Origin: Comamonadaceae bacterium | GTDB lineage: Bacteria; Pseudomonadota; Gammaproteobacteria; Burkholderiales; Burkholderiaceae_C | Length of the DNA stretch: 44,165 bases | Assembly: GCA_947454355.1 (NCBI GenBank) | Contig: CANGKR010000003.1 | Span: 1-44,165, forward strand | Direction of reading: 5' to 3' | Shown: positions 3,063 through 14,057 of the stretch, piece by piece | How the letters are laid out: the number at the start of each line of letters is the position of its first letter | Position numbering within the stretch: the first letter of the stretch is position 1 | The notes under the pieces: generated by a model | What the model saw: the letters and a program-made list of their open reading frames with translations, nothing else | The model's database searches: none | Told to the model about the DNA's origin: nothing | Position numbers and translations under genes: made by a program

Positions 3063-4265
3063 TCAGATCACTTTCTTTAATTTGAATTGCGCAATGGCTT
3101 CGGGCGTGTAGCCCAACTCGGTCAGGATGTCGTCGTTGTCTTCGCCCAGATCACGCTGAGTGAAACTCACCGCACTGGGTGTGCGAGACAAGGTAAAGGG
3201 TTGTGCCACCACGCGGATGTCGCCGCGTCGAGGGTGCTTCAAGGGTGCGGCGGCTTTCAAGTGCTGGACCTGTGGGTCTTCAAACACCTGCTGCATGTTG
3301 TAGATGGGACCGCACGGCACGCCAGCTTGGTTGAGCGCTTCCACCCAGTGCGCGGTGGGCTGCTGGGCAAACGCGGCATTGAGTTCGGCATTCAAAAATT
3401 CGCGGTCTTTCAATCGTCCGGGGTTTTGTTGGTAGCGCGGTTCATCGCGCAGGTCCAGGCGCTGAATCACTTCGCACAGGGCGCGGTACTGGTTGGTGCC
3501 CGAGGCCCCGATGTTGAAATACCCGTCGCTCGATCGGAAGGTGCCCATGGGCGTCGCAAACGGGTGGTCGTTACCGCTTTGCTCGGGGACCTCGCCATCG
3601 ATCAAATAGCGGGCTGCTTGAAAATCGCACAAGCTGATCATCGATTGCAAAAGGTTCGACTGCACCCACTGTCCCCGACCCGAGCTTTCCCGCTCGAGCA
3701 GCGCGATCAAAATACCCGTGGCGGCAAACACGCCCGCGCCGGAATCGGCGATCGCAATGCCTGCACGCACTGGGCCTTGCCCGGGCATGCCTGTGACCGA
3801 CATCATGCCGCCCATGCCTTGGGCAATCTGGTCAAAGCCAGGGCGTTTGCGATAGGGTCCGTCTTCGCCAAAGCCGGAGATGCTGGCCAACACAACGCGA
3901 GGGTTGATGGCGGCCAGTGTGTCGTAGTCAATGCCTAAACGGAACTTCACATCCGGGCGGTAGTTCTCCACCACCACATCGGCTTCTTTCACCAGCTTGT
4001 AAAAAATCTCGCGTGCTTCAGGTTCTTTGAGGTTCAGGGTGATGCCGCGTTTGTTGCGGTGCAAATTGAGCATGTCATAGGTTTCGCGGCCCCCTAAGGC
4101 ACCTTCGTTGGGGTCCAGTCCTGCCGGGGATTCGATGCGAATGACTTCGGCACCAAAGTCCGCCAAAGTTCGGACACAGGTCGGGCCGGAGCGGATGCGG
4201 GTGAGGTCCAGCACTTTGAAACGTTTCAAGGCGAGTGAGTCGGAACTTCTGGGTTGCATGGGCAT
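3063..4265 (-). CDS. class III CoA-transferase (CaiB/BaiF family)
   Basis: CoA-transferase of 400 residues that would move CoA from a donor thioester such as succinyl-CoA onto a carboxylic acid. The N-terminal VLDLTRIRSGPTCVRTLADFGAEVIRIE is the CoA-binding start of the family; LHRNKRGITLNLK follows; Asp145 in RPGFDQIAQGMGG aligns with the catalytic aspartate. First gene of the leftward operon, behind a sigma70-like promoter (4312-4340) overlapped by a palindromic word also found before the rightward CoA-transferase operon. The ATG at 4265 is taken as start; an ATG two codons later is equally possible. Confidence 0.93.
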   Translation of the reverse strand: MPMQPRSSDSLALKRFKVLDLTRIRSGPTCVRTLADFGAEVIRIESPAGLDPNEGALGGRETYDMLNLHRNKRGITLNLKEPEAREIFYKLVKEADVVVENYRPDVKFRLGIDYDTLAAINPRVVLASISGFGEDGPYRKRPGFDQIAQGMGGMMSVTGMPGQGPVRAGIAIADSGAGVFAATGILIALLERESSGRGQWVQSNLLQSMISLCDFQAARYLIDGEVPEQSGNDHPFATPMGTFRSSDGYFNIGASGTNQYRALCEVIQRLDLRDEPRYQQNPGRLKDREFLNAELNAAFAQQPTAHWVEALNQAGVPCGPIYNMQQVFEDPQVQHLKAAAPLKHPRRGDIRVVAQPFTLSRTPSAVSFTQRDLGEDNDDILTELGYTPEAIAQFKLKKVI

Positions 4266-4304
4266 TGTCCTGGCGGTGAAATGGCGTTAAGCTGGCATTG
4301 AATA

Positions 4305-4340
4305 TGTACGGACAATAAAGCCCGCCGTCATCAAAGTCAA
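4305..4340 (-). promoter_or_regulatory. sigma70-like promoter with probable GntR operator
   Basis: On the minus strand, TTGACT (4335-4340) and TATTGT (4312-4317) are separated by exactly 17 bases. The imperfect palindrome TGTCCGTACA (4305-4314) covers the second half of the -10. The same 10-mer, in the same orientation to transcription and followed by a similar AT-rich tail ending in TTCAA, lies at 5988-5997 in front of the other CoA-transferase operon. The likely ligand is the GntR protein encoded between them; overlap with the -10 fits repression. Confidence 0.7.
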
Positions 4341-4392
4341 TCGACTTGCACTCACATCAGGGTAAGTCATCACCGTCAAGGACCTGGTCACC

Positions 4393-5187
4393 ATGCCATC
4401 GCATCTGTACATCATCACCGGAGCTTCCAAAGGCCTGGGTCTTGAAATGGCGCTAGCGCTTCTGTCGCCTCGTAACCAACTGCTGTGCATCTCCCGAACG
4501 GCATCACCTGCCTTGACCGAAGCGGCTCAAAAGGCCGGTGCGTCGCTTGAGCAGTGGTGCGAGAATCTGGCCGATCCCGCGCCTGTGGCGGACCGTTTGG
4601 CGAGCTGGTTACCAATGCAAACGGAGCAGACTTGGGCCAGTGCCACTTTGATCAACAACGCCGGAACGCTGGGGGCGATGGCGCCATTGCAGACCATCTC
4701 GCAGGCGGTGATCACCCAGGCCATCACGGTGGACTTGATCGCACCGCTGCAATTGATGAGGACTTTTTTAGGCGCCACTCGCGAGGGTTGGGGTCAGGTG
4801 CGGATCCTGAACATTTCATCCGGCATGAGCCAGAGGGCCATGGCCGGTGCGGCCCTTTATGGTGCGTCCAAAGCGGGACTGGACCATCTGAGCCGATGTG
4901 TGGCGCTGGACGAAGCGCGTCGCAGCTCGGGTGCGCAGATTGTGTCACTGGCACCGGGTGTGATCGACACTGACATGCAGCAAGAACTGCGCAATGGCGA
5001 TGCATTGTTTCCCGATCGCGAGCGCTACATCCAGATGCAAGCCACCGGTGCTTTGACGCCTGCCCCAGACACCGCTCGGCAAGTGCTGGCCTATTTGCAT
5101 CACCCTTTGTATGGCAGCGAGCCGGTGGTCAACCTGGTTCAGTTGCGCAAAGATCTGGACCTGTCAACGCCGGGCGCTGCGGCTTGA
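4393..5187 (+). CDS. short-chain dehydrogenase/reductase
   Basis: NAD(P)-dependent oxidoreductase of 264 residues with a complete classical SDR set: TGASKGLG cofactor loop (9-16), NNAG (88-91), catalytic Ser142/143 in NISSG, and Tyr156/Lys160 in YGASK. The overall pattern resembles sepiapterin/benzil-reductase-like SDRs, but the substrate cannot be read from sequence. It is divergent from the leftward CoA-transferase operon and convergent with the GntR gene, overlapping it by 24 bases at the 3' ends. Its place inside the island suggests it reduces or oxidises a hydroxy/oxo intermediate of the same substrate (inference). No separate convincing promoter was seen in 4341-4392. Confidence 0.9.
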   Translation: MPSHLYIITGASKGLGLEMALALLSPRNQLLCISRTASPALTEAAQKAGASLEQWCENLADPAPVADRLASWLPMQTEQTWASATLINNAGTLGAMAPLQTISQAVITQAITVDLIAPLQLMRTFLGATREGWGQVRILNISSGMSQRAMAGAALYGASKAGLDHLSRCVALDEARRSSGAQIVSLAPGVIDTDMQQELRNGDALFPDRERYIQMQATGALTPAPDTARQVLAYLHHPLYGSEPVVNLVQLRKDLDLSTPGAAA

Positions 5188-5937
5188 TGTTGTAGCCGTT
5201 TTTGAAGCCAATTGCCACGAGGTGTTGAGGCGGAACCGGCTGGCTGCATACAGGTTGGAGGACACGGCCAAGAGCCGACCGCTGGCGTCCAGGTAGGCGC
5301 GTCGCATGTGCAGAGCGGGACTGTTTTTCGGCACGTCCAGCAGTTTTGCGGCTTTGAGTGGCATCAGCGTGGCTTCGATGTCTTGCTTGACCTGGCCTAT
5401 CGGTTGGCGGTGGTCTTCTTCCAGCATTTTGAAAATGCTCTTGTGTTGACCGTGCAATTGGCTCGCGATCGCTGCAAATTCGGGCCGCAAGTAAATCTGC
5501 GTGTATGAAATGGCGGTTGCGTCAGTCAGTGTCAAGCGCAGAGTGGTCAGTACGGTCCAAGCGGCATCCCGCTGGCCATCCAGGCTTTGTGCCAAGGCCA
5601 GGTCGGCCAAGACTTCGCGCTGCTCCAGCACCTGCAAACGGGTGGATTCGGTGTATTTGAACAATTCGTCCACCGTGCCCAGGGCGGCAATGTAGGGCGC
5701 CGATGCCGTTTTGGCGCAGACCACCGTACCAAAACCAGCACGCTTGGCGATCAGTCCGCGCTCGGCCAGGGTGCGTGTGGCTTCACGCACTGTGTGGCGA
5801 CTGACTTGGTAAGTCTGGCCCAATTGTTCTTCGGTCGGAAACACGCTGCCCACCGGGTAAATCCCTTTGGCAATGTCCTGCTCCAGACGTTCACGCAACT
5901 GCAAGTAACGAGGTTTGGCGTCATGAGTTTTCGGCAT
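5164..5937 (-). CDS. GntR family regulator, HutC subfamily (UTRA effector domain)
   Basis: Transcription factor of 257 residues. The N-terminal winged helix (about 10-75) carries the family signature FPTEEQLGQTYQVSRHTVREA; a C-terminal UTRA ligand domain (about 95-240) includes QIYLRPEFAAIA and ALHMRRAYLDASGR. It lies between two CoA-transferase operons and is divergent from the rightward one. TGTCCGTACA at both operon promoters is the obvious operator candidate, and the site at 5988-5997 is close enough to its own start that autoregulation is possible. HutC-type regulators usually repress until a pathway metabolite binds the UTRA domain (family knowledge). The last 24 bases overlap the end of the SDR gene. 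Confidence 0.93.
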   Translation of the reverse strand: MPKTHDAKPRYLQLRERLEQDIAKGIYPVGSVFPTEEQLGQTYQVSRHTVREATRTLAERGLIAKRAGFGTVVCAKTASAPYIAALGTVDELFKYTESTRLQVLEQREVLADLALAQSLDGQRDAAWTVLTTLRLTLTDATAISYTQIYLRPEFAAIASQLHGQHKSIFKMLEEDHRQPIGQVKQDIEATLMPLKAAKLLDVPKNSPALHMRRAYLDASGRLLAVSSNLYAASRFRLNTSWQLASKTATTSSRSARR

Positions 5938-5959
5938 GAGCGCAGTTTACGGGCATTGG

Positions 5960-5997
5960 TTGACATTGTCATCCGCTGAGATCAGAATGTCCGTACA
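5960..5997 (+). promoter_or_regulatory. sigma70-like promoter with probable GntR operator for the seven-gene operon
   Basis: A perfect TTGACA (5960-5965), a 17-base spacer and CAGAAT (5983-5988) form a rightward promoter. TGTCCGTACA (5988-5997) starts on the last base of the -10 and covers the expected start point. It repeats the word at 4305-4314. The leader to the ATG at 6019 would be only about 25 bases. Confidence 0.7.
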
Positions 5998-6018
5998 TTT
6001 CAATTGCTGTGTTTGGCC

Positions 6019-7185
6019 ATGCCCTCAACTTCTTCCCCGCGCGATGTTCGACCTTTTGAAGGCTTGGTGGTTGTCGAGCTCGGGCACAGCGTGGCCGCAC
6101 CTTTTGCCGCTCACATTCTGAGCGAGTTGGGCGCCCGGGTCATCAAGATCGAAAAGCAGGATGGCGACGATGCCCGCAAATGGGGACCACCTTTTTGGGA
6201 AGGGGCCTCAGCCTTTTTTCAAGCGCTCAACCGTAACAAGTCGTCGGTGGTCTGCAATTTCCATGACCCTGCCCATGTCGAAGCGGTGCAAACCCTGATT
6301 CAGAACGAAGCCGATGTGGTGCTGCAAAACCTCAGGCCCGGACAAGTCGAGAAAATCGGCATCGACGGCCCCAGTCTGTGCGCACGTAAGCCCAGTTTGA
6401 TTTACTGCAACCTCGGCGCCTTTGGCAGCGAAGGCCCGCTCAAGGACCGCCCGGGGTACGACCCCTTGATGCAAGCTTTCGGCGGCATCATGAGCACGAC
6501 AGGCGAAGAGGGCCGCCCCTCAGTGCGCGTGGGCGCCTCCATCGTGGACATGGGCACGGGCATGTGGTCCATCATCGGCATCCTCACTGCCTTGTATGAG
6601 CGGCAGCAAACCGGTCGGGGTCGGGTGCTGGATGTTTCTTTGTTCGAGACCGCGACCTCTTGGGTCTCGCTGCTGGCCGCGCAATACCTGGCCAGCGGCC
6701 AACTGGCCGGCAAGCAGGGTTCGGGCGCCCCGGGGATCGTGCCCTACAAGGCTTATGCCACCCGCGATGGCGAAATCGTGGTGGCCGCGGGCAGTGATGG
6801 TTTGTTCAAACGCCTGGCCCCAGCGGTAGGTCACCCCGAATGGCTGGACGATCCGCGCTACGCCGATAACCCCAGTCGTGTGGCGCACCAGGCCGAGCTT
6901 TACGGCCAGCTCGATGCCATCATGTACACGCAAGACACTGCCACCTGGGTGAGTCGTCTGGAGGCCGCCGGCATCCCCTGTTCAGCCGTGCAAAACATGG
7001 CCCAGATGGTGGCGCATCCCCAGACACAAGCCCTGGGCTTGATCCAGGACGTGCCCGGAACCGGTATGCGCTTTTTTGGATTGCCCTTGCGCTTTGATGG
7101 CGAGCGCCCACGCTCGCACCTGCCGCCGCCCAAATTGGGCGAGCATCAACACCTGATTTTCAAAGACGGAGACACCCTGCCATGA
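6019..7185 (+). CDS. class III CoA-transferase (CaiB/BaiF family)
   Basis: Second CoA-transferase of the island, 388 residues from the ATG at 6019. It carries FEGLVVVELGHSVAAPFAAH at the N-terminus, LNRNKSSVVCN, and Asp148 in DRPGYDPLMQAFGGIMS at the catalytic position. A TTG at 6004 would extend it by 5 codons but lies almost at the predicted transcription start, so the ATG is preferred, though neither has a clear ribosome-binding site. It heads a seven-gene rightward operon and overlaps the next gene by 4 bases (ATGA). By context it charges the pathway acid with CoA; the human relative SUGCT uses glutarate and hydroxymethylglutarate, so a dicarboxylate substrate is reasonable. Confidence 0.93.
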   Translation: MPSTSSPRDVRPFEGLVVVELGHSVAAPFAAHILSELGARVIKIEKQDGDDARKWGPPFWEGASAFFQALNRNKSSVVCNFHDPAHVEAVQTLIQNEADVVLQNLRPGQVEKIGIDGPSLCARKPSLIYCNLGAFGSEGPLKDRPGYDPLMQAFGGIMSTTGEEGRPSVRVGASIVDMGTGMWSIIGILTALYERQQTGRGRVLDVSLFETATSWVSLLAAQYLASGQLAGKQGSGAPGIVPYKAYATRDGEIVVAAGSDGLFKRLAPAVGHPEWLDDPRYADNPSRVAHQAELYGQLDAIMYTQDTATWVSRLEAAGIPCSAVQNMAQMVAHPQTQALGLIQDVPGTGMRFFGLPLRFDGERPRSHLPPPKLGEHQHLIFKDGDTLP

Positions 7186-7979
7186 ACTGGCCCGCTTACG
7201 AGACTTTATTGACCGAGATGGTGGATGCGCATGTGCTGTTGATCACCATCAACCGCCCTCAAGTGGGCAATGCCTTGAACACCCAAATGGGCAGGGATTT
7301 TTTGGACCTGTGGACCCGCCTGACTGAAGACCCAGGCGATGTGCGCTGCATCGTGTTGACCGGCGCTGGCGAGAAAATATTTTGTGCAGGCGGCGACCTC
7401 AAAGAGCGCAATGGCATGACCAAAGACCAGTGGATCAAACAGCACCAGTTGTTTGAACGCATGTACTGGGCACTGACCGATTTGCCGATCCCGGTAATTG
7501 CAGCGGTCAATGGCCATGCCTATGCCGGTGGCTTTGAGACTGTGTTGTCATGTGATTTTGCCTACGCCTCCACCGCCGCACGTTTTGCGCTGACCGAAGT
7601 GACCTTGGGCATCATGCCTGGCGCTGGTGGCACTCAAAACCTGCCGCGTGCCATTGGCGAACGCAAAGCCAAAGAAATGCTCATGACGGGTCAGCCCATC
7701 AATGCGCAAAAGGCGCTGGAGTGGGGCATCTTCAATGCCATCGCCGAGCCCTCTGAGGTGCTGCCCATGGCGCTGCAAACAGCGAAAACCATTGCTGGCA
7801 ATGCACCCTTGTCGGTGCGGCAGATCAAAAAGTCGGTGCGCTATGGCCACCAAATGGAATTGCGCACAGCCTTTCGTTTTGAGGTCGAGGCCTACAACCA
7901 TTTGGTCGAAACCGAAGACCGCTACGAAGGCGTTTTGGCCTTTAATGAAAAACGAAAAGCTGTTTTCAAAGGCCGTTGA
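7182..7979 (+). CDS. enoyl-CoA hydratase, canonical active site
   Basis: Crotonase-family protein of 265 residues with a full catalytic set: oxyanion loop FCAGGDLKER (67-76), Glu119 in YAGGFETVLSCD and Glu139 in LTEVTLGIMPGAGGTQ, matching rat Glu144 and Glu164. It should add water to a 2-enoyl-CoA, making a 3-hydroxyacyl-CoA. Coupled by ATGA overlap to the CoA-transferase and followed by an HMG-CoA-lyase family gene, so a methylglutaconyl-CoA hydratase role is attractive (inference). Contrast the other crotonase at 2260-3060, which lacks both glutamates. Confidence 0.93.
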   Translation: MNWPAYETLLTEMVDAHVLLITINRPQVGNALNTQMGRDFLDLWTRLTEDPGDVRCIVLTGAGEKIFCAGGDLKERNGMTKDQWIKQHQLFERMYWALTDLPIPVIAAVNGHAYAGGFETVLSCDFAYASTAARFALTEVTLGIMPGAGGTQNLPRAIGERKAKEMLMTGQPINAQKALEWGIFNAIAEPSEVLPMALQTAKTIAGNAPLSVRQIKKSVRYGHQMELRTAFRFEVEAYNHLVETEDRYEGVLAFNEKRKAVFKGR

Positions 7980-8008
7980 TTGCGGCCCCTTTCTATCAGG
8001 AGAATTCC

Positions 8009-8959
8009 ATGCAAGATGTGTACGTTCGAGAAGTGGGTTTGCGCGATGGTCTGCAAATTCATCCGGTCTTCATGCCCACGGACACCAAGTTGGCCTGGAT
8101 CCGGGCTGAGGCTCAGGCCGGTGTGTCCGAGATCGAGGTGACTTCATACGTGCCGGCCAAAGTGGTGCCGCAATTTGTGGACGCTGAAACCGTGACAGTC
8201 GAGGCCTTGAAGATCCCCAAGTTGACCGTGTCGGCGCTGATTCCCAATTACCGGGGCGCCGAGCGCGGCATCGAGCTAGGTGCGCACAAACTCAATTTCG
8301 TGATGTCGGTCAGCAAAACCCACAATTTGAAAAACGTGCGGCGAGAACGCGAAGAATCGCTGGCCGATTTTGTCCGCATTGTCGAGTTGGTGCGTGCACA
8401 ACCTGCGGACCGCAGGCCTACCATCGTGGGCGGTTTGGCCACATCGTTTGGTTGTTCTTATGAAGGACGTGTGCCGGTGGCCGATGTCGTGAAATACGCG
8501 GTCGCATTCGCTGAAGCCGGCGCCCAGGAAATTGTGGTGCCCGACACTGTAGGCTATGCCGACCCACAACAAGTGCGTACGGTCTTTAAGGCCGTGATGG
8601 ATGCGGTGGGCCCCATTCCAGTGGCGGCGCATTTTCACGATACGCGCGGCATTGGCCTGGCCAATGTGACGGCTGCGCTCGAATGCGGTGTGCGCCGTTT
8701 TGATGCGTCTCTGGCCGGAATGGGTGGCTGTCCCTTCGCGCCCGGCGCTACCGGCAACATCGTCATGGATGACCTGTGCTTCATGCTCGAATCCATGGGG
8801 ATGAAAACAGGGGTGGACTTGGCGCAGTTGCTGGCGATTCGCGAGATGGTTCGCGAAGCCTTGCCTGACATCGAGATGCACGGCGCTTTGGCCCGTGCTG
8901 GCTTGCCTAAACACTTTGACAAACCCGGTCGCCGTCAGGTCGAGGCCGAGTTGGTTTGA
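8009..8959 (+). CDS. hydroxymethylglutaryl-CoA lyase family protein
   Basis: TIM-barrel lyase of 316 residues from the ATG at 8009, which has AGGAGA 7 bases upstream; an in-frame start further upstream has no such support. Features of HMG-CoA lyase are present: VREVGLRDGLQ at the N-terminus (metal/catalytic Asp13), HFHDTRGIGLAN with the metal-binding histidines, and Cys241 in GMGGCPFAPGATGN. The family splits 3-hydroxy-3-methylglutaryl-CoA, or near analogues, into acetyl-CoA (or propionyl-CoA) plus an oxo-acid. Fourth chemical step of the proposed pathway after activation, oxidation and hydration. The exact chain length of the substrate cannot be read from sequence. Confidence 0.92.
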   Translation: MQDVYVREVGLRDGLQIHPVFMPTDTKLAWIRAEAQAGVSEIEVTSYVPAKVVPQFVDAETVTVEALKIPKLTVSALIPNYRGAERGIELGAHKLNFVMSVSKTHNLKNVRREREESLADFVRIVELVRAQPADRRPTIVGGLATSFGCSYEGRVPVADVVKYAVAFAEAGAQEIVVPDTVGYADPQQVRTVFKAVMDAVGPIPVAAHFHDTRGIGLANVTAALECGVRRFDASLAGMGGCPFAPGATGNIVMDDLCFMLESMGMKTGVDLAQLLAIREMVREALPDIEMHGALARAGLPKHFDKPGRRQVEAELV

Positions 8960-8975
8960 CATCCGAAAGATCACC

Positions 8976-10157
8976 ATGCATTCCACTGAAGACGTCCATA
9001 TCACCTTGGGGCAGGACTTCCTCGAAATCCGCGAGAGCATTCGCAAAATTTGCGCGGGCTTTCCGGGCGCCTATTGGCGCGACCTGGAGGAGCGCGTGGC
9101 CTACCCGACCGAGTTCGTCAACGCGCTGACTGAAGCGGGCTATTTGGCCGCCTTGATCCCTGAGGAATATGGCGGCGCAGGTTTGCCCTTGCGTGCAGCG
9201 GCGGTCATCCTCGAAGAAATTCACGCAGCCGGCTGTAATGCCGGTGCATGCCATGCTCAGATGTACATCATGGGCACCCTGCTGCGACACGGTTCGCCCG
9301 CGCAAAAAGCGCAGTACCTCCCGCAAATCGCTTCGGGTGCCTTGCGCTTGCAGGCCTTTGGCGTGACCGAGCCCACCTCGGGCACCGACACCACCAAACT
9401 CAAGACCCGTGCGGTCCGTCAAGGTGATCACTACGTCGTGCACGGTCAAAAAGTCTGGACCTCACGCGCCTTGCACTCCGACATGATGCTTTTGCTGGCG
9501 CGCACCACGCCGCTGGATCAGGTCAGTAAAAAAACCGAAGGCCTGTCGGTGTTTTTGGTCGATATCCGCGAAGCCTTAGGCCATGGCCTGACGATCAAGC
9601 CCATCAAGGCCATGATCAACCACCATGCGACGGAAGTCTTTTTCGATGGCATGAAAGTGCCCGCTGCCAACCTCATTGGTGAAGAGGGTAAAGGCTTCAA
9701 ATACATCCTGGACGGCATGAATGCCGAGCGCATTTTGGTGTCTTCAGAGTCGATTGGCGATGCCCGCTGGTTCGTCAAAACCGCAGTCAACTACGCCAAG
9801 GAGCGTGTGGTGTTCGACCGGCCGATCGGACAGAACCAGGCGATTGCATTTCCGATTGCCCGTGCACACGCCGAGACCGAAGCCGCCGATTTGCTGTTGC
9901 GCAAAGCCAGCGCTTTGTTTGCAGCAGGACAAGCCTGCGCCCCAGAGGTCAACATGGCCAAGCTGTTGGCCTCCGAAGCTGCTTGGCACGCCGCCGAAGC
10001 CTGCTTGCAAACCCACGGTGGATTTGGTTATGCCCGCGAATACGACGTAGAGCGTAAATGGCGCGAAACCCGCTTGATGCAGATCGCCCCCATCTCCACC
10101 AACCTGGTGCTGTCTTACGTGGCCGAGCATGTGCTGGGCCTGCCCCGTTCATTCTGA
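8976..10157 (+). CDS. acyl-CoA dehydrogenase
   Basis: FAD enzyme of 394 residues from the ATG at 8976, 16 bases after the lyase stop; longer in-frame starts lie inside the lyase gene and add unrelated sequence. Visible motifs: FGVTEPTSGTDTT (FAD/substrate), YVVHGQKVWTSRA, RPIGQNQAIAFPIA and LQTHGGFGYAREYDVER. The usual catalytic Glu in the C-terminal YEGT loop is absent (QIAPISTN instead). Glu251 in MNAERILV aligns with the alternative base used by isovaleryl-CoA and long-chain acyl-CoA dehydrogenases. That would fit a branched substrate, so it probably introduces the 2,3 double bond for the enoyl-CoA hydratase of this operon. Confidence 0.92.
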   Translation: MHSTEDVHITLGQDFLEIRESIRKICAGFPGAYWRDLEERVAYPTEFVNALTEAGYLAALIPEEYGGAGLPLRAAAVILEEIHAAGCNAGACHAQMYIMGTLLRHGSPAQKAQYLPQIASGALRLQAFGVTEPTSGTDTTKLKTRAVRQGDHYVVHGQKVWTSRALHSDMMLLLARTTPLDQVSKKTEGLSVFLVDIREALGHGLTIKPIKAMINHHATEVFFDGMKVPAANLIGEEGKGFKYILDGMNAERILVSSESIGDARWFVKTAVNYAKERVVFDRPIGQNQAIAFPIARAHAETEAADLLLRKASALFAAGQACAPEVNMAKLLASEAAWHAAEACLQTHGGFGYAREYDVERKWRETRLMQIAPISTNLVLSYVAEHVLGLPRSF

Positions 10158-10169
10158 AAGGTACAGGCC

Positions 10170-11522
10170 ATGACCGGTTTGACCGCTGCGCTGGCTCAAT
10201 TTGCGAGCCAGCCGAATTTTGCCCCCTTGCCCGCACGCGCGGTCGAGATCGTGCAGTCGGGATTCATCGACACCATCGGCACCATGCTGGCGGGTCGTGA
10301 AGAGCCCGTTGTGCGCATCGCGCTGTCGATGGTCGCTGACAAGCAATCCACCGTGCGTGAAGCCTCCCTGCTCTTGGGCCCAGCGCTAGCCAGTGCCAGC
10401 GATGCGGCTTTGGTCAATGCCACAGCAGGACATGCCCTGGATTTTGACGACGTGGCCTTGGGTGGTCACCCCAGCACGGTGTTGGTGCCGGCAGTGCTGG
10501 CGGCCGGTCAGCATGTGGGAGCCACGGGTGATCAGGTCTTGCGAGCATATTTGATCGGTTACGAAGTCTGGGCTGAGTTGTTTGTGCGTGAAAAAGACGC
10601 GTATCACCTCAAAGGCTGGCACCCCACCGCCGTCTTGGGCACCGTGGGCGCCAGCGCAGCTGTGGCCCATCTTTATGGCATGTCAGCAGCGCAGTGTCAG
10701 CATGTGATCGCCTTGGCCGCCAGCATGTCCAGTGGCTTGGTGGCCAATTTCGGCACCATGACCAAACCCCTGCATGCCGGGCGCGCTGCCGCCTGCGCCA
10801 TCGAAGCTGTGCGTTGGGTGCACAAAGGTCTGACCGCCGCCCCCGATGCCTTAGAGCATGCGGCCGGTTACCTCTCGGCCTTGTCACCACATGGTGAGGT
10901 GGACCGCACATCAGCGGTGGGTGATTTGGGTCAGCGTTTTCGGATTCTGGATTCGGGCTTATCGATCAAAAAATACCCAACCTGTTACGCCACCCACCGT
11001 GTGATCGATGGCGTGTTGGACCTGTGTGCCCAGCACCGCGTTCGTTTGCAGGACGTAGCCGAGGTGCATACCCACATTGGTTTTGCGCAAGCCTCGATGC
11101 TGCGCAACCACCAGCCGCAAACTGGCTTGGAAGCTAAGTTCAGCATGGAGTTTGCCGTGGCGGCTTCTCTGGTGCGCGGCAAGGTGGGCTTGACCGAATT
11201 GAACGACGACTTTGTGCAGGAAGCTGCGGTCAAAGACACCATGAGCAAAGTCAAAATCAGCACAGTGGATACACAGTGCAGCATCGAGCCGGTGTTTGCC
11301 ATGCACGATCGCGTGCAGCTGCAATTGCACAACGGCACGCTGCTCGATTCGGGCGACATCCGCTTTGCTCGAGGCAATGCCATGCTGCCCTTGCGTGATG
11401 CCGACTTGCAAGCCAAGTTCATGGACTGTGTGCAAGGCGCCCCCTTGGATGGCGCGTTACTGTTCAGTCAACTCTCACACCTGTCGGCTCAAGCCGATGT
11501 GCGTTTTGCCCCCAACCATTGA
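10170..11522 (+). CDS. MmgE/PrpD family protein
   Basis: Protein of 450 residues of the family that holds 2-methylcitrate dehydratase (PrpD), cis-aconitate decarboxylase and many uncharacterised members acting on polycarboxylates. Diagnostic blocks: FIDTIGTMLAGREEPVV, NATAGHALDFDDVALGGHPS (about 86-105), GWHPTAVLGTVGASAAVA, KPLHAGRAAACAIEA and KKYPTCYATHRVIDG. It starts 12 bases after the acyl-CoA dehydrogenase stop with AAGG upstream, inside the operon. It may dehydrate, isomerise or decarboxylate the branched acid before CoA activation. No prpB or prpC is nearby, so a plain methylcitrate cycle is unlikely. Confidence 0.92.
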   Translation: MTGLTAALAQFASQPNFAPLPARAVEIVQSGFIDTIGTMLAGREEPVVRIALSMVADKQSTVREASLLLGPALASASDAALVNATAGHALDFDDVALGGHPSTVLVPAVLAAGQHVGATGDQVLRAYLIGYEVWAELFVREKDAYHLKGWHPTAVLGTVGASAAVAHLYGMSAAQCQHVIALAASMSSGLVANFGTMTKPLHAGRAAACAIEAVRWVHKGLTAAPDALEHAAGYLSALSPHGEVDRTSAVGDLGQRFRILDSGLSIKKYPTCYATHRVIDGVLDLCAQHRVRLQDVAEVHTHIGFAQASMLRNHQPQTGLEAKFSMEFAVAASLVRGKVGLTELNDDFVQEAAVKDTMSKVKISTVDTQCSIEPVFAMHDRVQLQLHNGTLLDSGDIRFARGNAMLPLRDADLQAKFMDCVQGAPLDGALLFSQLSHLSAQADVRFAPNH

Positions 11523-11535
11523 AACAGGAGAAATT

Positions 11536-12498
11536 ATGAAAAAAATCCTTACGGCTTTATTGCTCGGCTGTGTGACTTGGGTCAGTCTGGCGCAAAGTGC
11601 CTATCCCACCAAGCCGGTCAAGGTCATCGTGCCTTTTCCGGTGGGACAAGCCACCGATGTGATCGCCCGAATCTTGTCTCAGGAATTCACAGAGACGCTG
11701 GGGCAAAGTTTTTATATAGACAACAAAGGGGGCGCTGCAGCCATTGTGGGCATGGAGGCAGCGAAAGCCTCTGCTCCTGATGGGTATTCGCTGCTCATGG
11801 CCTCCAGTGGCCCCTTGACCATCAACCCGGCTTTATATTCAAAATTGACCTACGACACCTTGCGCGACTTCCAGCCCATCGGCACCGCGGTGATCGTGCC
11901 GCAGTTCTTGGTCGTCAACAAAGACTTCCCGGCCAACAACCTCAAGGAGTTGATTGCCTACGTCAAGCAAAACCCCGGCAAGACCAATTACGGCTCAGGT
12001 GGCAGCGGCTTGACCAACCACTTGACCATGGAAATGCTCAAAAGCCAGACCGGCATGCAAATCACCCATGTGCCCTACAAAGGTGCCGCCGCGGCATTGA
12101 CAGGTTTGATTGGGGGCGAGATCAACATGATGTTCGAGTCCGGTCCGCCCGTCATCCCGCACATCAAAAGCGGCAAACTGAAAGTCATTGCCGTGGGCAG
12201 CAAAAAACGCTCAGTGTCCATGCCTGACGTGCTGACTGTGGCTGAAGCCGGCGTGCCCGGTTTTGCCGCGCAGACCTGGGCAGCCTTGTTGGCACCTGCG
12301 CAAACCCCTAAGGCCATCATCACCAAGATGAATGCGGAGTTGAATCTGGCTTTGCAAAAGCCCGCCATCAAAGAACGCTTGATGACCTTGGGTGCCGAAA
12401 CCTTTGAGGGCACGCCCGAGCAGGCAGTGGAGCACATTAAGTTTGAATTGGCCAATTGGGCAGCCGCTGTCAAAGCTTCTGGCGCCAAAGCCGATTGA
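11536..12498 (+). CDS. TctC/Bug family periplasmic solute-binding protein
   Basis: Binding protein of 320 residues from the ATG at 11536, which has CAGGAGAAATT upstream; in-frame extension into the MmgE/PrpD gene is spurious. A signal peptide ends near SLAQS. Family blocks: YPTKPVKVIVPFPVGQATDV, APDGYSLLMASSG and HVPYKGAAAALTGLIGGEI. The usual PPGG of the ligand loop is PVGQ here, a possible ligand-specificity change. It sits 13 bases after the MmgE/PrpD gene and 8 before the ligase gene, so it should capture the acid used by this operon. Orphan: no TctA/TctB. Confidence 0.92.
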   Translation: MKKILTALLLGCVTWVSLAQSAYPTKPVKVIVPFPVGQATDVIARILSQEFTETLGQSFYIDNKGGAAAIVGMEAAKASAPDGYSLLMASSGPLTINPALYSKLTYDTLRDFQPIGTAVIVPQFLVVNKDFPANNLKELIAYVKQNPGKTNYGSGGSGLTNHLTMEMLKSQTGMQITHVPYKGAAAALTGLIGGEINMMFESGPPVIPHIKSGKLKVIAVGSKKRSVSMPDVLTVAEAGVPGFAAQTWAALLAPAQTPKAIITKMNAELNLALQKPAIKERLMTLGAETFEGTPEQAVEHIKFELANWAAAVKASGAKAD

Positions 12499-12506
12499 GC
12501 GAATCC

Positions 12507-14057
12507 ATGACCACGGTCGCTTGGTCAGACCAATTGCAGGTCTTAGCGGCCCGCATGGGTCAGCACGTAGCCGTCAGTGATGGGCAAGGCCAGCAGCTGA
12601 GCTATCGACAACTGAATCAGCTAGCACATCAGCTGGCCCATGCTCTGTTAAAGCGCAGGCTGACATCGGGTCAAGCGATTGGTGTGTGGTTGCCTAATTC
12701 TCTGGATGCTGTGTGTTGTGCTTATGGCATTCGTTTGATGGGCGCAGCGGAGACGCCTTTGTCCTGGTCCCTTACCGATGACGAGCTCTCCTGGTGTAGC
12801 GGTCTGGCGCAAGTGCAGTGTGTGATTACCCGCGCCGACCGAGCAGATCGGGTACGAGCTTGCGGTCGGGTACCGGTCCTGGTGGATGAGTTGCTGGGGC
12901 TGGAGATGTCATGGGGCCCGTCAGCGACTGCGAGTGAATTCCGGGTTCCCGCTTTACCACCGGTGAACAGCGCCCATACGGGTCGCATCCTCTTCACCTC
13001 AGGCACCACCGGTAAACCCAAGGGTGTCATTTACACCCACGGTGCGCGTTGGATCGGCGAGCAAATGCTCAAAGCAGCAATGCCCATGGTGCCCAGCGTG
13101 GACGATACTTTGTTGCTCATGACCCCCTTTGTGCATGGCGCTTCGCTCTTGACCTTTGCATGGTGTGATCTCGGCGGTCAGGTGTTGTTGCATGACGGTG
13201 TGGACATGGCACGGATCGAGCCGCTCTTGCAGCAGGGTGATGTGCAAGCTGTATTTGCACCGCCCACAGTGTTGGCCAAAATCACTCAAGCCATGGCGGG
13301 CCAGCGGGTGGAGGGCGTGCGCTGCGTGTTCACGGGCACGCAGGCCATGACCGCGAATCTCTACCAGGCGACCAGTGCGTTGTTCGGCCCGGTGGTTCGC
13401 ATCACTTACGGTAAATCAGAATGCGTCAACCCCATCACTGTGTTGAGTCCATCGCAAACCCATGAGTACTTCACCCAAGCCTATCAGGCACCGGGCGCTT
13501 GTGTGGGTTGGCCCGTGCCCGGGGTGGAACTGCGCATCCAAGCGCCACAGGACAACGCTGAGGACGATCAAGGCGAGGTGTATTTGCGTGCACCTCAGTT
13601 GTGTGCAGGGTTGATCTACCCCGATGGGATGGTGGGTCATGAAGACGGTTGGCATGCCACCGGAGACCTGGGTTATTTTGATGAAGCTGGCCGCTTGGTC
13701 CTGACAGGCCGCGTGGCCGATGTGATCAAGACCGGTGGCTACCGCGTCAATCCCGACGAAATCGAAGCCTTGCAGTCAGGCGGTAGTTTGTACAGTGCCT
13801 TGTGCGTGACCTCTGTACCGTCTGATTATTGGGGAGAGGTGATCATTGCCGTGGCGCAAGATGTGCAGCCCGGATGGGCAGACGAGGCACGCGAACGCGT
13901 GGCCGCCTTGTCCAAATACAAACAACCCCGTGTGTATGTGAGTTTGCCCAGCTTACCCCGCACTGCCCAAGGTAAAGTGAGTCGTCGCCAAGTGGCTCAA
14001 GCTGTCTTACAAAGCCACCAATGGGTGGACGGACCTTACCCGACGATGTTGCCCTAA
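12507..14057 (+). CDS. AMP-forming acyl-CoA synthetase/ligase (ANL family)
   Basis: ANL enzyme of 516 residues that would adenylate a carboxylic acid and join it to CoA. Motifs: phosphate loop LFTSGTTGKPKG (about 162-173), YGKSEC in the A5 position (usual YGxTE has Ser for Thr), GWHATGDLGYFDEAGRLVLTGR (A7/A8 hinge), and catalytic Lys490 in AQGKVSRR. The start at 12507 follows the TctC stop by 8 bases; upstream in-frame codons lie inside TctC. Last gene of the rightward operon. Having both a CoA-transferase and an ATP-dependent ligase suggests either two acids, or a primer activation that the transferase then spreads to new substrate. Confidence 0.92.
   Translation: MTTVAWSDQLQVLAARMGQHVAVSDGQGQQLSYRQLNQLAHQLAHALLKRRLTSGQAIGVWLPNSLDAVCCAYGIRLMGAAETPLSWSLTDDELSWCSGLAQVQCVITRADRADRVRACGRVPVLVDELLGLEMSWGPSATASEFRVPALPPVNSAHTGRILFTSGTTGKPKGVIYTHGARWIGEQMLKAAMPMVPSVDDTLLLMTPFVHGASLLTFAWCDLGGQVLLHDGVDMARIEPLLQQGDVQAVFAPPTVLAKITQAMAGQRVEGVRCVFTGTQAMTANLYQATSALFGPVVRITYGKSECVNPITVLSPSQTHEYFTQAYQAPGACVGWPVPGVELRIQAPQDNAEDDQGEVYLRAPQLCAGLIYPDGMVGHEDGWHATGDLGYFDEAGRLVLTGRVADVIKTGGYRVNPDEIEALQSGGSLYSALCVTSVPSDYWGEVIIAVAQDVQPGWADEARERVAALSKYKQPRVYVSLPSLPRTAQGKVSRRQVAQAVLQSHQWVDGPYPTMLP

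What the first reader, a model, noticed from the sequence alone, without database searches (positions are those of the whole stretch)
4305..5997. One operator word overlaps or abuts the -10 of two operons flanking a GntR gene
TGTCCGTACA occurs at 4305-4314 (read leftward) and 5988-5997 (read rightward). In each place it overlaps the end of a -10 element that stands exactly 17 bases from a TTGACT/TTGACA, is in the same orientation relative to transcription, and is followed by a similar tail ending TTCAA. I noticed no third copy. The HutC-type GntR gene between them is the natural ligand. This ties two physically separate CoA-transferase operons into one regulon.
Basis: partly seen in the sequence, partly recalled or inferred. 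Interest (0 to 1): 0.7.

Follow-up and report, generated by a model that had tools for sequence, protein, structure and literature searches.

The report
One repressor box, two operon promoters
A short mirror-symmetric DNA word sits on the start signals of two gene sets, probably for breaking down an organic acid, on either side of a repressor gene; comparison with related bacteria says the repressor very probably switches both sets off together, a well-supported but ordinary kind of control.

Summary
Confirmed and extended. TGTCCGTACA is at 4305-4314(-) and 5988-5997(+), the only exact copies in the window, each overlapping the -10 of a TTGACW-N17 promoter. It is one form of a palindrome, TGTMCGKACA. 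Counting the window, nine fetched loci carry this GntR gene; the palindrome is kept in 9 of 9 at each of the two places and no stretch of region A, and only one of region B, is better conserved. Seven relatives carry a further copy at a TctC/SDR promoter. The core GTMCGKAC has the GT-N4-AC spacing published for HutC-type GntR operators, with CG instead of TA in the centre. In 90 genomes of the genus the GntR gene and CaiB_L occur in the same nine. In five genomes without it, the orthologous TctC/SDR promoter carries another palindrome just after the -10, and a 38-40% identical GntR/UTRA gene follows SDR. Best reading: this GntR/UTRA protein is a repressor occupying -10/+1 of both CoA-transferase operons. 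Binding, sign of control, effector and substrate are untested. New member of a known kind.

The parts
4305..4314 (-). operator B, TGTCCGTACA, in front of the CaiB_L operon
   Evidence: exact match; palindrome in 9 of 9 loci
5988..5997 (+). operator A, TGTCCGTACA, between gntR and the CaiB_R operon
   Evidence: exact match; palindrome in 9 of 9 loci
4335..4340 (-). -35 TTGACT of the CaiB_L promoter
   Evidence: TTGACA or TTGACT in 9 of 9
4312..4317 (-). -10 TATTGT of the CaiB_L promoter, shares 3 bases with operator B
5960..5965 (+). -35 TTGACA of the CaiB_R promoter
   Evidence: TTGACA in 8 of 9, ATGACA only 15 bases before the operator in L012
5983..5988 (+). -10 CAGAAT of the CaiB_R promoter, shares 1 base with operator A
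5164..5937 (-). gntR1: GntR winged helix + UTRA (HutC-type) regulator, 257 aa
   Evidence: Pfam PF00392 and PF07702 above cut-off
3063..4265 (-). CaiB_L, family III CoA-transferase, first gene of the left operon
   Evidence: Pfam PF02515
2260..3060 (-). ECH_L, enoyl-CoA hydratase/isomerase family
   Evidence: Pfam PF00378
1283..2242 (-). TctC_L, binding protein of tripartite tricarboxylate transporters
   Evidence: Pfam PF03401
4393..5187 (+). SDR, short-chain dehydrogenase, divergent from CaiB_L and convergent with gntR1
   Evidence: Pfam PF00106
6022..7185 (+). CaiB_R, family III CoA-transferase, first gene of the right operon
   Evidence: Pfam PF02515
7182..7979 (+). ECH_R, enoyl-CoA hydratase family
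   Evidence: Pfam
7976..8959 (+). HMG-CoA-lyase-like protein
   Evidence: PF00682; NF004283 above cut-off
8895..10157 (+). acyl-CoA dehydrogenase; orthologue alignments in the cluster begin at residue 23-33, so the true start is probably about 70-100 bases downstream
   Evidence: Pfam; alignment starts
10170..11522 (+). MmgE/PrpD family protein
   Evidence: Pfam
11545..12495 (+). TctC-type binding protein
   Evidence: Pfam
12456..14057 (+). AMP-binding acyl-CoA ligase-like protein, probable end of the right operon
   Evidence: Pfam
4351..4368 (-). second conserved element GAYTTACCCTKANGTGAG upstream of the CaiB_L -35; factor unknown
   Evidence: exact in the window and in 7 of 8 other loci, L009 differing at its 3' end

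Best explanation
The GntR/UTRA protein encoded at 5164-5937 (GntR1) is a dimeric repressor of the HutC type. It binds the palindrome TGTMCGKACA (here TGTCCGTACA) that overlaps the -10 and the probable transcription start of the CaiB_L operon (leftward) and the CaiB_R operon (rightward), so RNA polymerase cannot use either promoter. A small acid or acyl-CoA binding the UTRA domain would release it and turn on both operons together. Operator A also lies 50 bases in front of gntR1 and may give autoregulation. Shown here: sequence anatomy, conservation, co-occurrence and motif fit. Inferred: binding, repression rather than activation, effector and substrate. The enzyme set (CoA-transferase, acyl-CoA dehydrogenase, hydratase, HMG-CoA-lyase-like enzyme) would suit a branched dicarboxylic acid; that is a guess from the families.
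For: (1) Palindrome at the same place in 9 of 9 loci for A and 9 of 9 for B; mean pairwise identity of its 10 columns 0.956 vs 0.481 for the rest in A, 0.944 vs 0.553 in B. (2) Variation respects the symmetry: TGTCCGTACA, its reverse complement, or TGTCCGGACA. (3) A further promoter, TctC2/SDR2, has the word in 7 of 7 SDR2 orthologues of GntR1 genomes, five inside the cluster, one 44 kb away on the same contig and one on another contig. (4) GntR1 in 9 of 90 genomes of the genus, CaiB_L orthologues (86-89%) in the same nine, CaiB_R orthologues (81-85%) in eight of them. CaiB_L paralogues (52-57%) of 19 other genomes: palindrome in 0 of 19 loci, 17 of which hold at least 200 upstream bases. (5) TGTMCGKACA: 55 sites in the nine genomes against 114 for the reversed word; 23 of 55 are in this cluster; one genome has only 3 in 3.0 Mb, all here. 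(6) GT-N4-AC spacing and M/K positions equal the HutC consensus GTMTAKAC (PMC4494728, sections read); the recognition helix has Arg and His at positions 38 and 39 as AraR does (table, alignment), and the AraR consensus core is GTaCGTAc (PMC4218819, passage). (7) Five genomes lacking GntR1 have at the orthologous TctC2/SDR2 promoter another palindrome and another GntR/UTRA gene after SDR2.
Against: No binding or expression data exist. All nine GntR1 genomes are of one genus, so shared ancestry contributes to the conservation; no tree correction was made. The centre is CG, not the TA of the HutC consensus. In L012 the right operon is absent and the spacer and -10 beside operator A are gone, though the operator remains. 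The gntR1 promoter is unclear: the weak leftward candidate (ATGACA-17-TAAACT, 5972-5944) would put operator A upstream of its -35. Two of seven GntR1 genomes with the luciferase-like gene lack the word there.
Confidence: 0.85

Rival explanations
1. The word is the operator of another regulator encoded elsewhere, and gntR1 is a bystander.
For: No direct binding evidence; copies also stand in front of genes outside the cluster.
Against: gntR1 is adjacent to the sites in all nine loci, the core has HutC spacing, and genomes with a different GntR beside the SDR2 module have a different palindrome there.
Confidence: 0.07
2. GntR1 acts as an activator or dual regulator rather than a simple repressor.
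For: A second conserved element upstream of the CaiB_L -35 (4351-4368) suggests that more than one factor acts on this promoter.
Against: Operators overlapping the -10 and the start site are in a blocking position; an activator would normally sit upstream of the -35 (general knowledge).
Confidence: 0.06
3. The shared 10-mer is chance plus shared ancestry of promoters, with no regulator.
For: Such 10-mers recur a few times per genome: 4 exact copies in 2.69 Mb, and several palindromes of relatives lie inside coding sequence.
Against: Kept as a palindrome at 25 promoter places (9 A, 9 B, 7 C) in otherwise diverged intergenic DNA; absent from 19 of 19 CaiB_L paralogue loci.
Confidence: 0.02

Closest known systems
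HutC subfamily of GntR regulators (HutC, NagR/YvoA, DasR, PhnF)
   Same: GntR winged helix plus UTRA domain; operator GT-M-NN-K-AC with 4-base spacing as in the published consensus NyGTMTAKACNy (PMC4494728); solved relatives by sequence include YvoA/NagR and DasR.
   Different: Centre CG instead of TA; NCBIfam equivalogs for PhnF (95.8 of 156.8 bits) and HutC (90.9 of 220) are not reached; the targets are CoA-transferase/TctC operons.
AraR of Bacillus subtilis
   Same: Consensus At(T/A)tGTaCGTAcaa(A/T)T (PMC4218819, passage) has the same GT-N-CG-N-AC core; His at position 39 in both (table; alignment).
   Different: GntR1 has a UTRA sensor domain; AraR is listed as a separate minor subfamily (PMC4494728, passage), its sensor being LacI-like (recalled). 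No membership is claimed.
GntR2 of relatives (L148-L152, L002)
   Same: GntR + UTRA (four of the six sequences scanned), 37-40% identical to GntR1, next to SDR2 or TctC, palindrome at the -10 of the TctC promoter.
   Different: Another palindrome, CGGACGTCCG (CGGACGACCG in L148), one base after a TAACAT -10; never in the same genome as GntR1 among 90.

Membership tests
GntR family, HutC subfamily | N-terminal GntR winged helix and C-terminal UTRA domain | tested here: met
   PF00392 59.4 bits (cut-off 27), PF07702 70.2 bits (cut-off 23.8)
GntR family, HutC subfamily | palindromic operator with GT and AC 4 bases apart | tested here: met
   GTMCGKAC at 25 of 25 promoter places examined (9 A, 9 B, 7 C) against the consensus quoted in PMC4494728; that GntR1 binds them is inferred
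GntR family, HutC subfamily | TA in the centre of the operator (a consensus, with published exceptions) | tested here: not met
   CG in all 25; the paper correlates HTH position 39 with the central pair, and it is His in all 13 GntR1/GntR2 sequences aligned (numbering is my assignment)
GntR family, HutC subfamily | ligand-controlled DNA binding by the protein | not testable with these tools
   needs EMSA or footprinting
PhnF and HutC equivalogs | score above the NCBIfam cut-off | tested here: not met
   95.8 vs 156.8 and 90.9 vs 220 bits
AraR subfamily | LacI-like sugar-binding C-terminal domain (recalled) | tested here: not met
   the C-terminal domain is UTRA

The most novel reading that the evidence does not exclude
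Regulator replacement at an orthologous promoter: in this genus the TctC2/SDR2 promoter is held either by GntR1 (palindrome TGTCCGTACA, regulator encoded in the CoA-transferase cluster, which in two genomes does not contain the module) or by the 38-40% identical GntR2 (palindrome around CGGACGTCCG, regulator encoded right after SDR2), never both. If true, one promoter has exchanged operator and repressor together while keeping the blocking position at the -10, and GntR1 has grown from a local into a scattered regulon (luciferase-like, TRAP-transporter and ligase genes), using a CG-centred HutC operator read by His39.
Probability: 0.55. Interest if true: 0.5.

Novelty: new member of a known kind. 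Interest (0 to 1): 0.4.

Why it matters
It gives an uncharacterised GntR regulator of Comamonadaceae a concrete operator, targets and a testable logic, and ties two CoA-transferase operons into one pathway, a lead to the unknown substrate. The GntR1/GntR2 pair is a natural experiment on how a repressor and its operator change together.

Tried and rejected
Tail ending TTCAA as part of the signal: rejected, not conserved. 'Same orientation' as evidence: rejected, the site is a palindrome. Counting all 55 palindromes as regulon members: rejected. Seven are the start codon region (ATGTCCGGACAC or a close form) of a Lon gene, all seven Lon by Pfam. Thirteen were left unassigned; 11 of these lie inside an ORF of at least 200 aa. 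DctQ sites: 3 of 7 GntR1 genomes, 0 of 22 others, one truncated locus of 30 dropped; ligase sites: 2 of 7 and 0 of 4. Both are kept only as weak candidates. Luciferase-like gene: of 35 matches 30 loci were fetched; six with 61-65% identity and one without upstream DNA (L133) were dropped, leaving 5 of 7 GntR1 genomes and 0 of 16 others (Fisher p 0.0006, not corrected for kinship); 11 of the 16 have a different upstream context, so the fair comparison is 5 of 7 vs 0 of 5. The luciferase rows used a start 45 residues too far upstream and are superseded. CaiB_R paralogues (58-60%): 1 of 5 loci holds the palindrome, and that one (L110) is the TctC2/SDR2 site of its genome. Distant homologues L003-L005 (38-39%): no exact word and no such palindrome seen by eye. 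One search printed '5 of 106 windows better' for region A; that was a rounding effect, and one search finds none better.

Literature: searches for TGTCCGGACA (18 papers), TGTCCGTACA (22, 20 listed), Limnohabitans with GntR (0), HutC-subfamily operator terms (8), and three combinations of GntR, HutC, CoA-transferase/CaiB, TctC and regulon terms (1; 44 with 15 listed; 2) showed no paper on this regulon in the listings seen. Papers beyond the listings, supplements and RegPrecise itself were not seen.

Full report
OBSERVATION. The word TGTCCGTACA occurs at 4305-4314 on the minus strand and 5988-5997 on the plus strand and nowhere else exactly in the window. Read in the direction of its operon, each copy overlaps the end of a -10 hexamer (TATTGT 4317-4312; CAGAAT 5983-5988) that stands 17 bases from TTGACT (4340-4335) or TTGACA (5960-5965). 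A consensus promoter scan of 4200-6100 found three sites against a mean of 0.5 in shuffles; two are these. The sites lie 39 bases before CaiB_L and 78 before the divergent SDR gene, and 50 before gntR and 24 before CaiB_R. The window's genome holds four exact copies in 2.69 Mb. Looser matches are no more common than chance: 25 with up to two mismatches against 25.7 expected.

NEIGHBOURHOOD. Left, leftward: CaiB-type CoA-transferase, enoyl-CoA hydratase, TctC. Then SDR rightward, converging on gntR (GntR + UTRA, 257 aa) leftward. Right, rightward: a second CoA-transferase, enoyl-CoA hydratase, HMG-CoA-lyase-like, acyl-CoA dehydrogenase, MmgE/PrpD, TctC and an AMP-binding ligase. One operator lies in each of the two divergent intergenic regions that flank the SDR-gntR pair.

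CONSERVATION. One scan of the genome collection gave eight loci with a 71-81% identical GntR; their records are titled Comamonadaceae (six), uncultured Burkholderiales (one) and Limnohabitans (one). Seven keep the arrangement; L012 has neither the right operon nor SDR. With the window, TGTMCGKACA is present in 9 of 9 gntR/CaiB_R regions (A) and 9 of 9 CaiB_L promoters (B). In A it is TGTCCGTACA in eight and its reverse complement in L007; in B it is TGTCCGTACA in five and the perfect palindrome TGTCCGGACA in four. Mean pairwise identity of the ten columns against the remaining columns is 0.956 vs 0.481 in A, 0.944 vs 0.553 in B and 1.000 vs 0.531 in C (the seven TctC2/SDR2 sites below). No 10-column window of A scores higher than the site; in B one does, in a separate upstream element, and in C none. 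From the -35 to the site it is 28 bases in A (8 of 9) and 26-27 in B and C. In L012 a 13-base gap in the alignment takes out the spacer and -10 of region A, leaving ATGACA 15 bases before an intact operator. Survival of operator A there without the right operon is what autoregulation of gntR would predict, but one case proves little.

FURTHER PROMOTER. Five relatives have a third copy inside the fetched cluster, between a TctC gene and an SDR gene (SDR2). In two others the module lies elsewhere, 44 kb away on the same contig (G406) or on another contig (G399), with the same promoter anatomy. In all, 7 of 7 SDR2 orthologues (84-100%) in GntR1 genomes have the word at -60 or -61. The other two GntR1 genomes, the window's (85% complete) and that of L012, have no SDR2 match at E <= 1e-90, with 29 of 44 first-look candidates scored in each.

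REGULATOR AND OPERATOR. In 90 genomes of the genus GntR1 is found in nine, CaiB_L orthologues of 86-89% in the same nine and CaiB_R orthologues of 81-85% in eight of these. In 399 genomes of the family only four others passed E <= 1e-40, at 37-39% identity. CaiB_L paralogues of 52-57% in 19 other genomes have the palindrome in 0 of 19 fetched loci, 17 of which hold at least 200 upstream bases. Five genomes without GntR1 hold SDR2 at 73-77%. There the TctC promoter is TTGACW-N18-TAACAT followed one base later by CGGACGTCCG (CGGACGACCG in one), and the gene after SDR2 is another GntR protein, 38-40% identical to GntR1, with a UTRA domain in the three of the five scanned. That second regulator is in exactly those five of 90 genomes and never with GntR1. 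A member outside the genus (L002) has the same palindrome beside TctC and its own GntR/UTRA gene. The two kinds of site share the string GTCCG, so the two specificities may overlap.

WIDER REGULON. TGTMCGKACA has 55 sites in the nine GntR1 genomes; the reversed control word has 114, with the caveat that reversal turns CG into GC. Of the 55, 23 are in the cluster, 2 at the moved TctC2/SDR2 module, 5 before a luciferase-like gene, 7 at the start codon of Lon and so probably coding, 3 before DctQ, 2 before a ligase, and 13 unassigned. The luciferase-like promoter has the word in 5 of 7 GntR1 genomes and 0 of 16 others, of which only 5 have a comparable upstream region. DctQ: 3 of 7 and 0 of 22. 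Ligase: 2 of 7 and 0 of 4. These extra members are candidates, not conclusions; the counts are not corrected for kinship.

PROTEIN SIDE. All nine GntR1 sequences have SRHTVREA as recognition helix, and so do the four GntR2 sequences aligned. In the numbering of Suvorova et al. (PMC4494728; abstract, sections 5, 11, 15 and 16 and further passages seen) this puts Arg at 38 and His at 39, my assignment from the alignment. Their HutC consensus is GTMTAKAC with position 39 correlated with the central pair, and in the YtrA subfamily His39 goes with G/C. AraR has His there and a GTaCGTAc core (PMC4218819, passages). The CG centre seen here fits that pattern. Position 28 is not Arg in any of the nine, which agrees with T rather than G before GT, since the paper links Arg28 to G. 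NagR (PMC4333415, passages), of the same subfamily, blocks transcription from its operators and is released by effectors. [quoted passage not shown] operator A (50 bases from gntR, 24 from CaiB_R) fits.

MECHANISM. Most likely a dimer of GntR1 sits on -10/+1 of both promoters and blocks polymerase until a pathway metabolite binds the UTRA domain. Anatomy, conservation and co-occurrence are shown; binding, sign of control, effector and substrate are inferred.

VERDICT. The finding is real and its interpretation stands, with the tail dropped and a further promoter added from relatives. It is a new member of a known kind. The regulator exchange at the TctC2/SDR2 promoter is the part with most interest.

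Noticed in passing
window 4351-4368 (-): A second conserved element, GAYTTACCCTKANGTGAG, upstream of the CaiB_L -35; kept in L012 although SDR is gone there, so it probably serves CaiB_L. With up to 2 mismatches there are 15 matches in six genomes, six of them at this promoter; the reversed control has 4.
   Followed up: partly
L148-L152, L002: A different GntR/UTRA gene (GntR2) beside SDR2 or TctC with its own palindrome one base after the -10; mutually exclusive with GntR1 in 90 genomes.
   Followed up: partly
L113 (genome G483): Genome without a detected GntR1 (81% complete) whose luciferase-like promoter has CGTCCGTTTA where close relatives have TGTCCGTACA, as if the operator were decaying.
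   Followed up: no
L012 2241-2250: Right operon absent and a 13-base gap removes its spacer and -10, yet operator A remains and now overlaps CATAAT read toward gntR (by eye).
   Followed up: partly
L014 3528 and L015 3471 (window's genome, contigs C30 and C101): The two other exact copies in the genome, before a TRAP-transporter DctQ gene and an acyl-CoA ligase gene; a palindrome is found there in two, and in one, of the other GntR1 genomes.
   Followed up: partly
window 5944-5972 (-): Weak leftward promoter candidate ATGACA-17-TAAACT that would start transcription almost at the gntR ATG.
   Followed up: no
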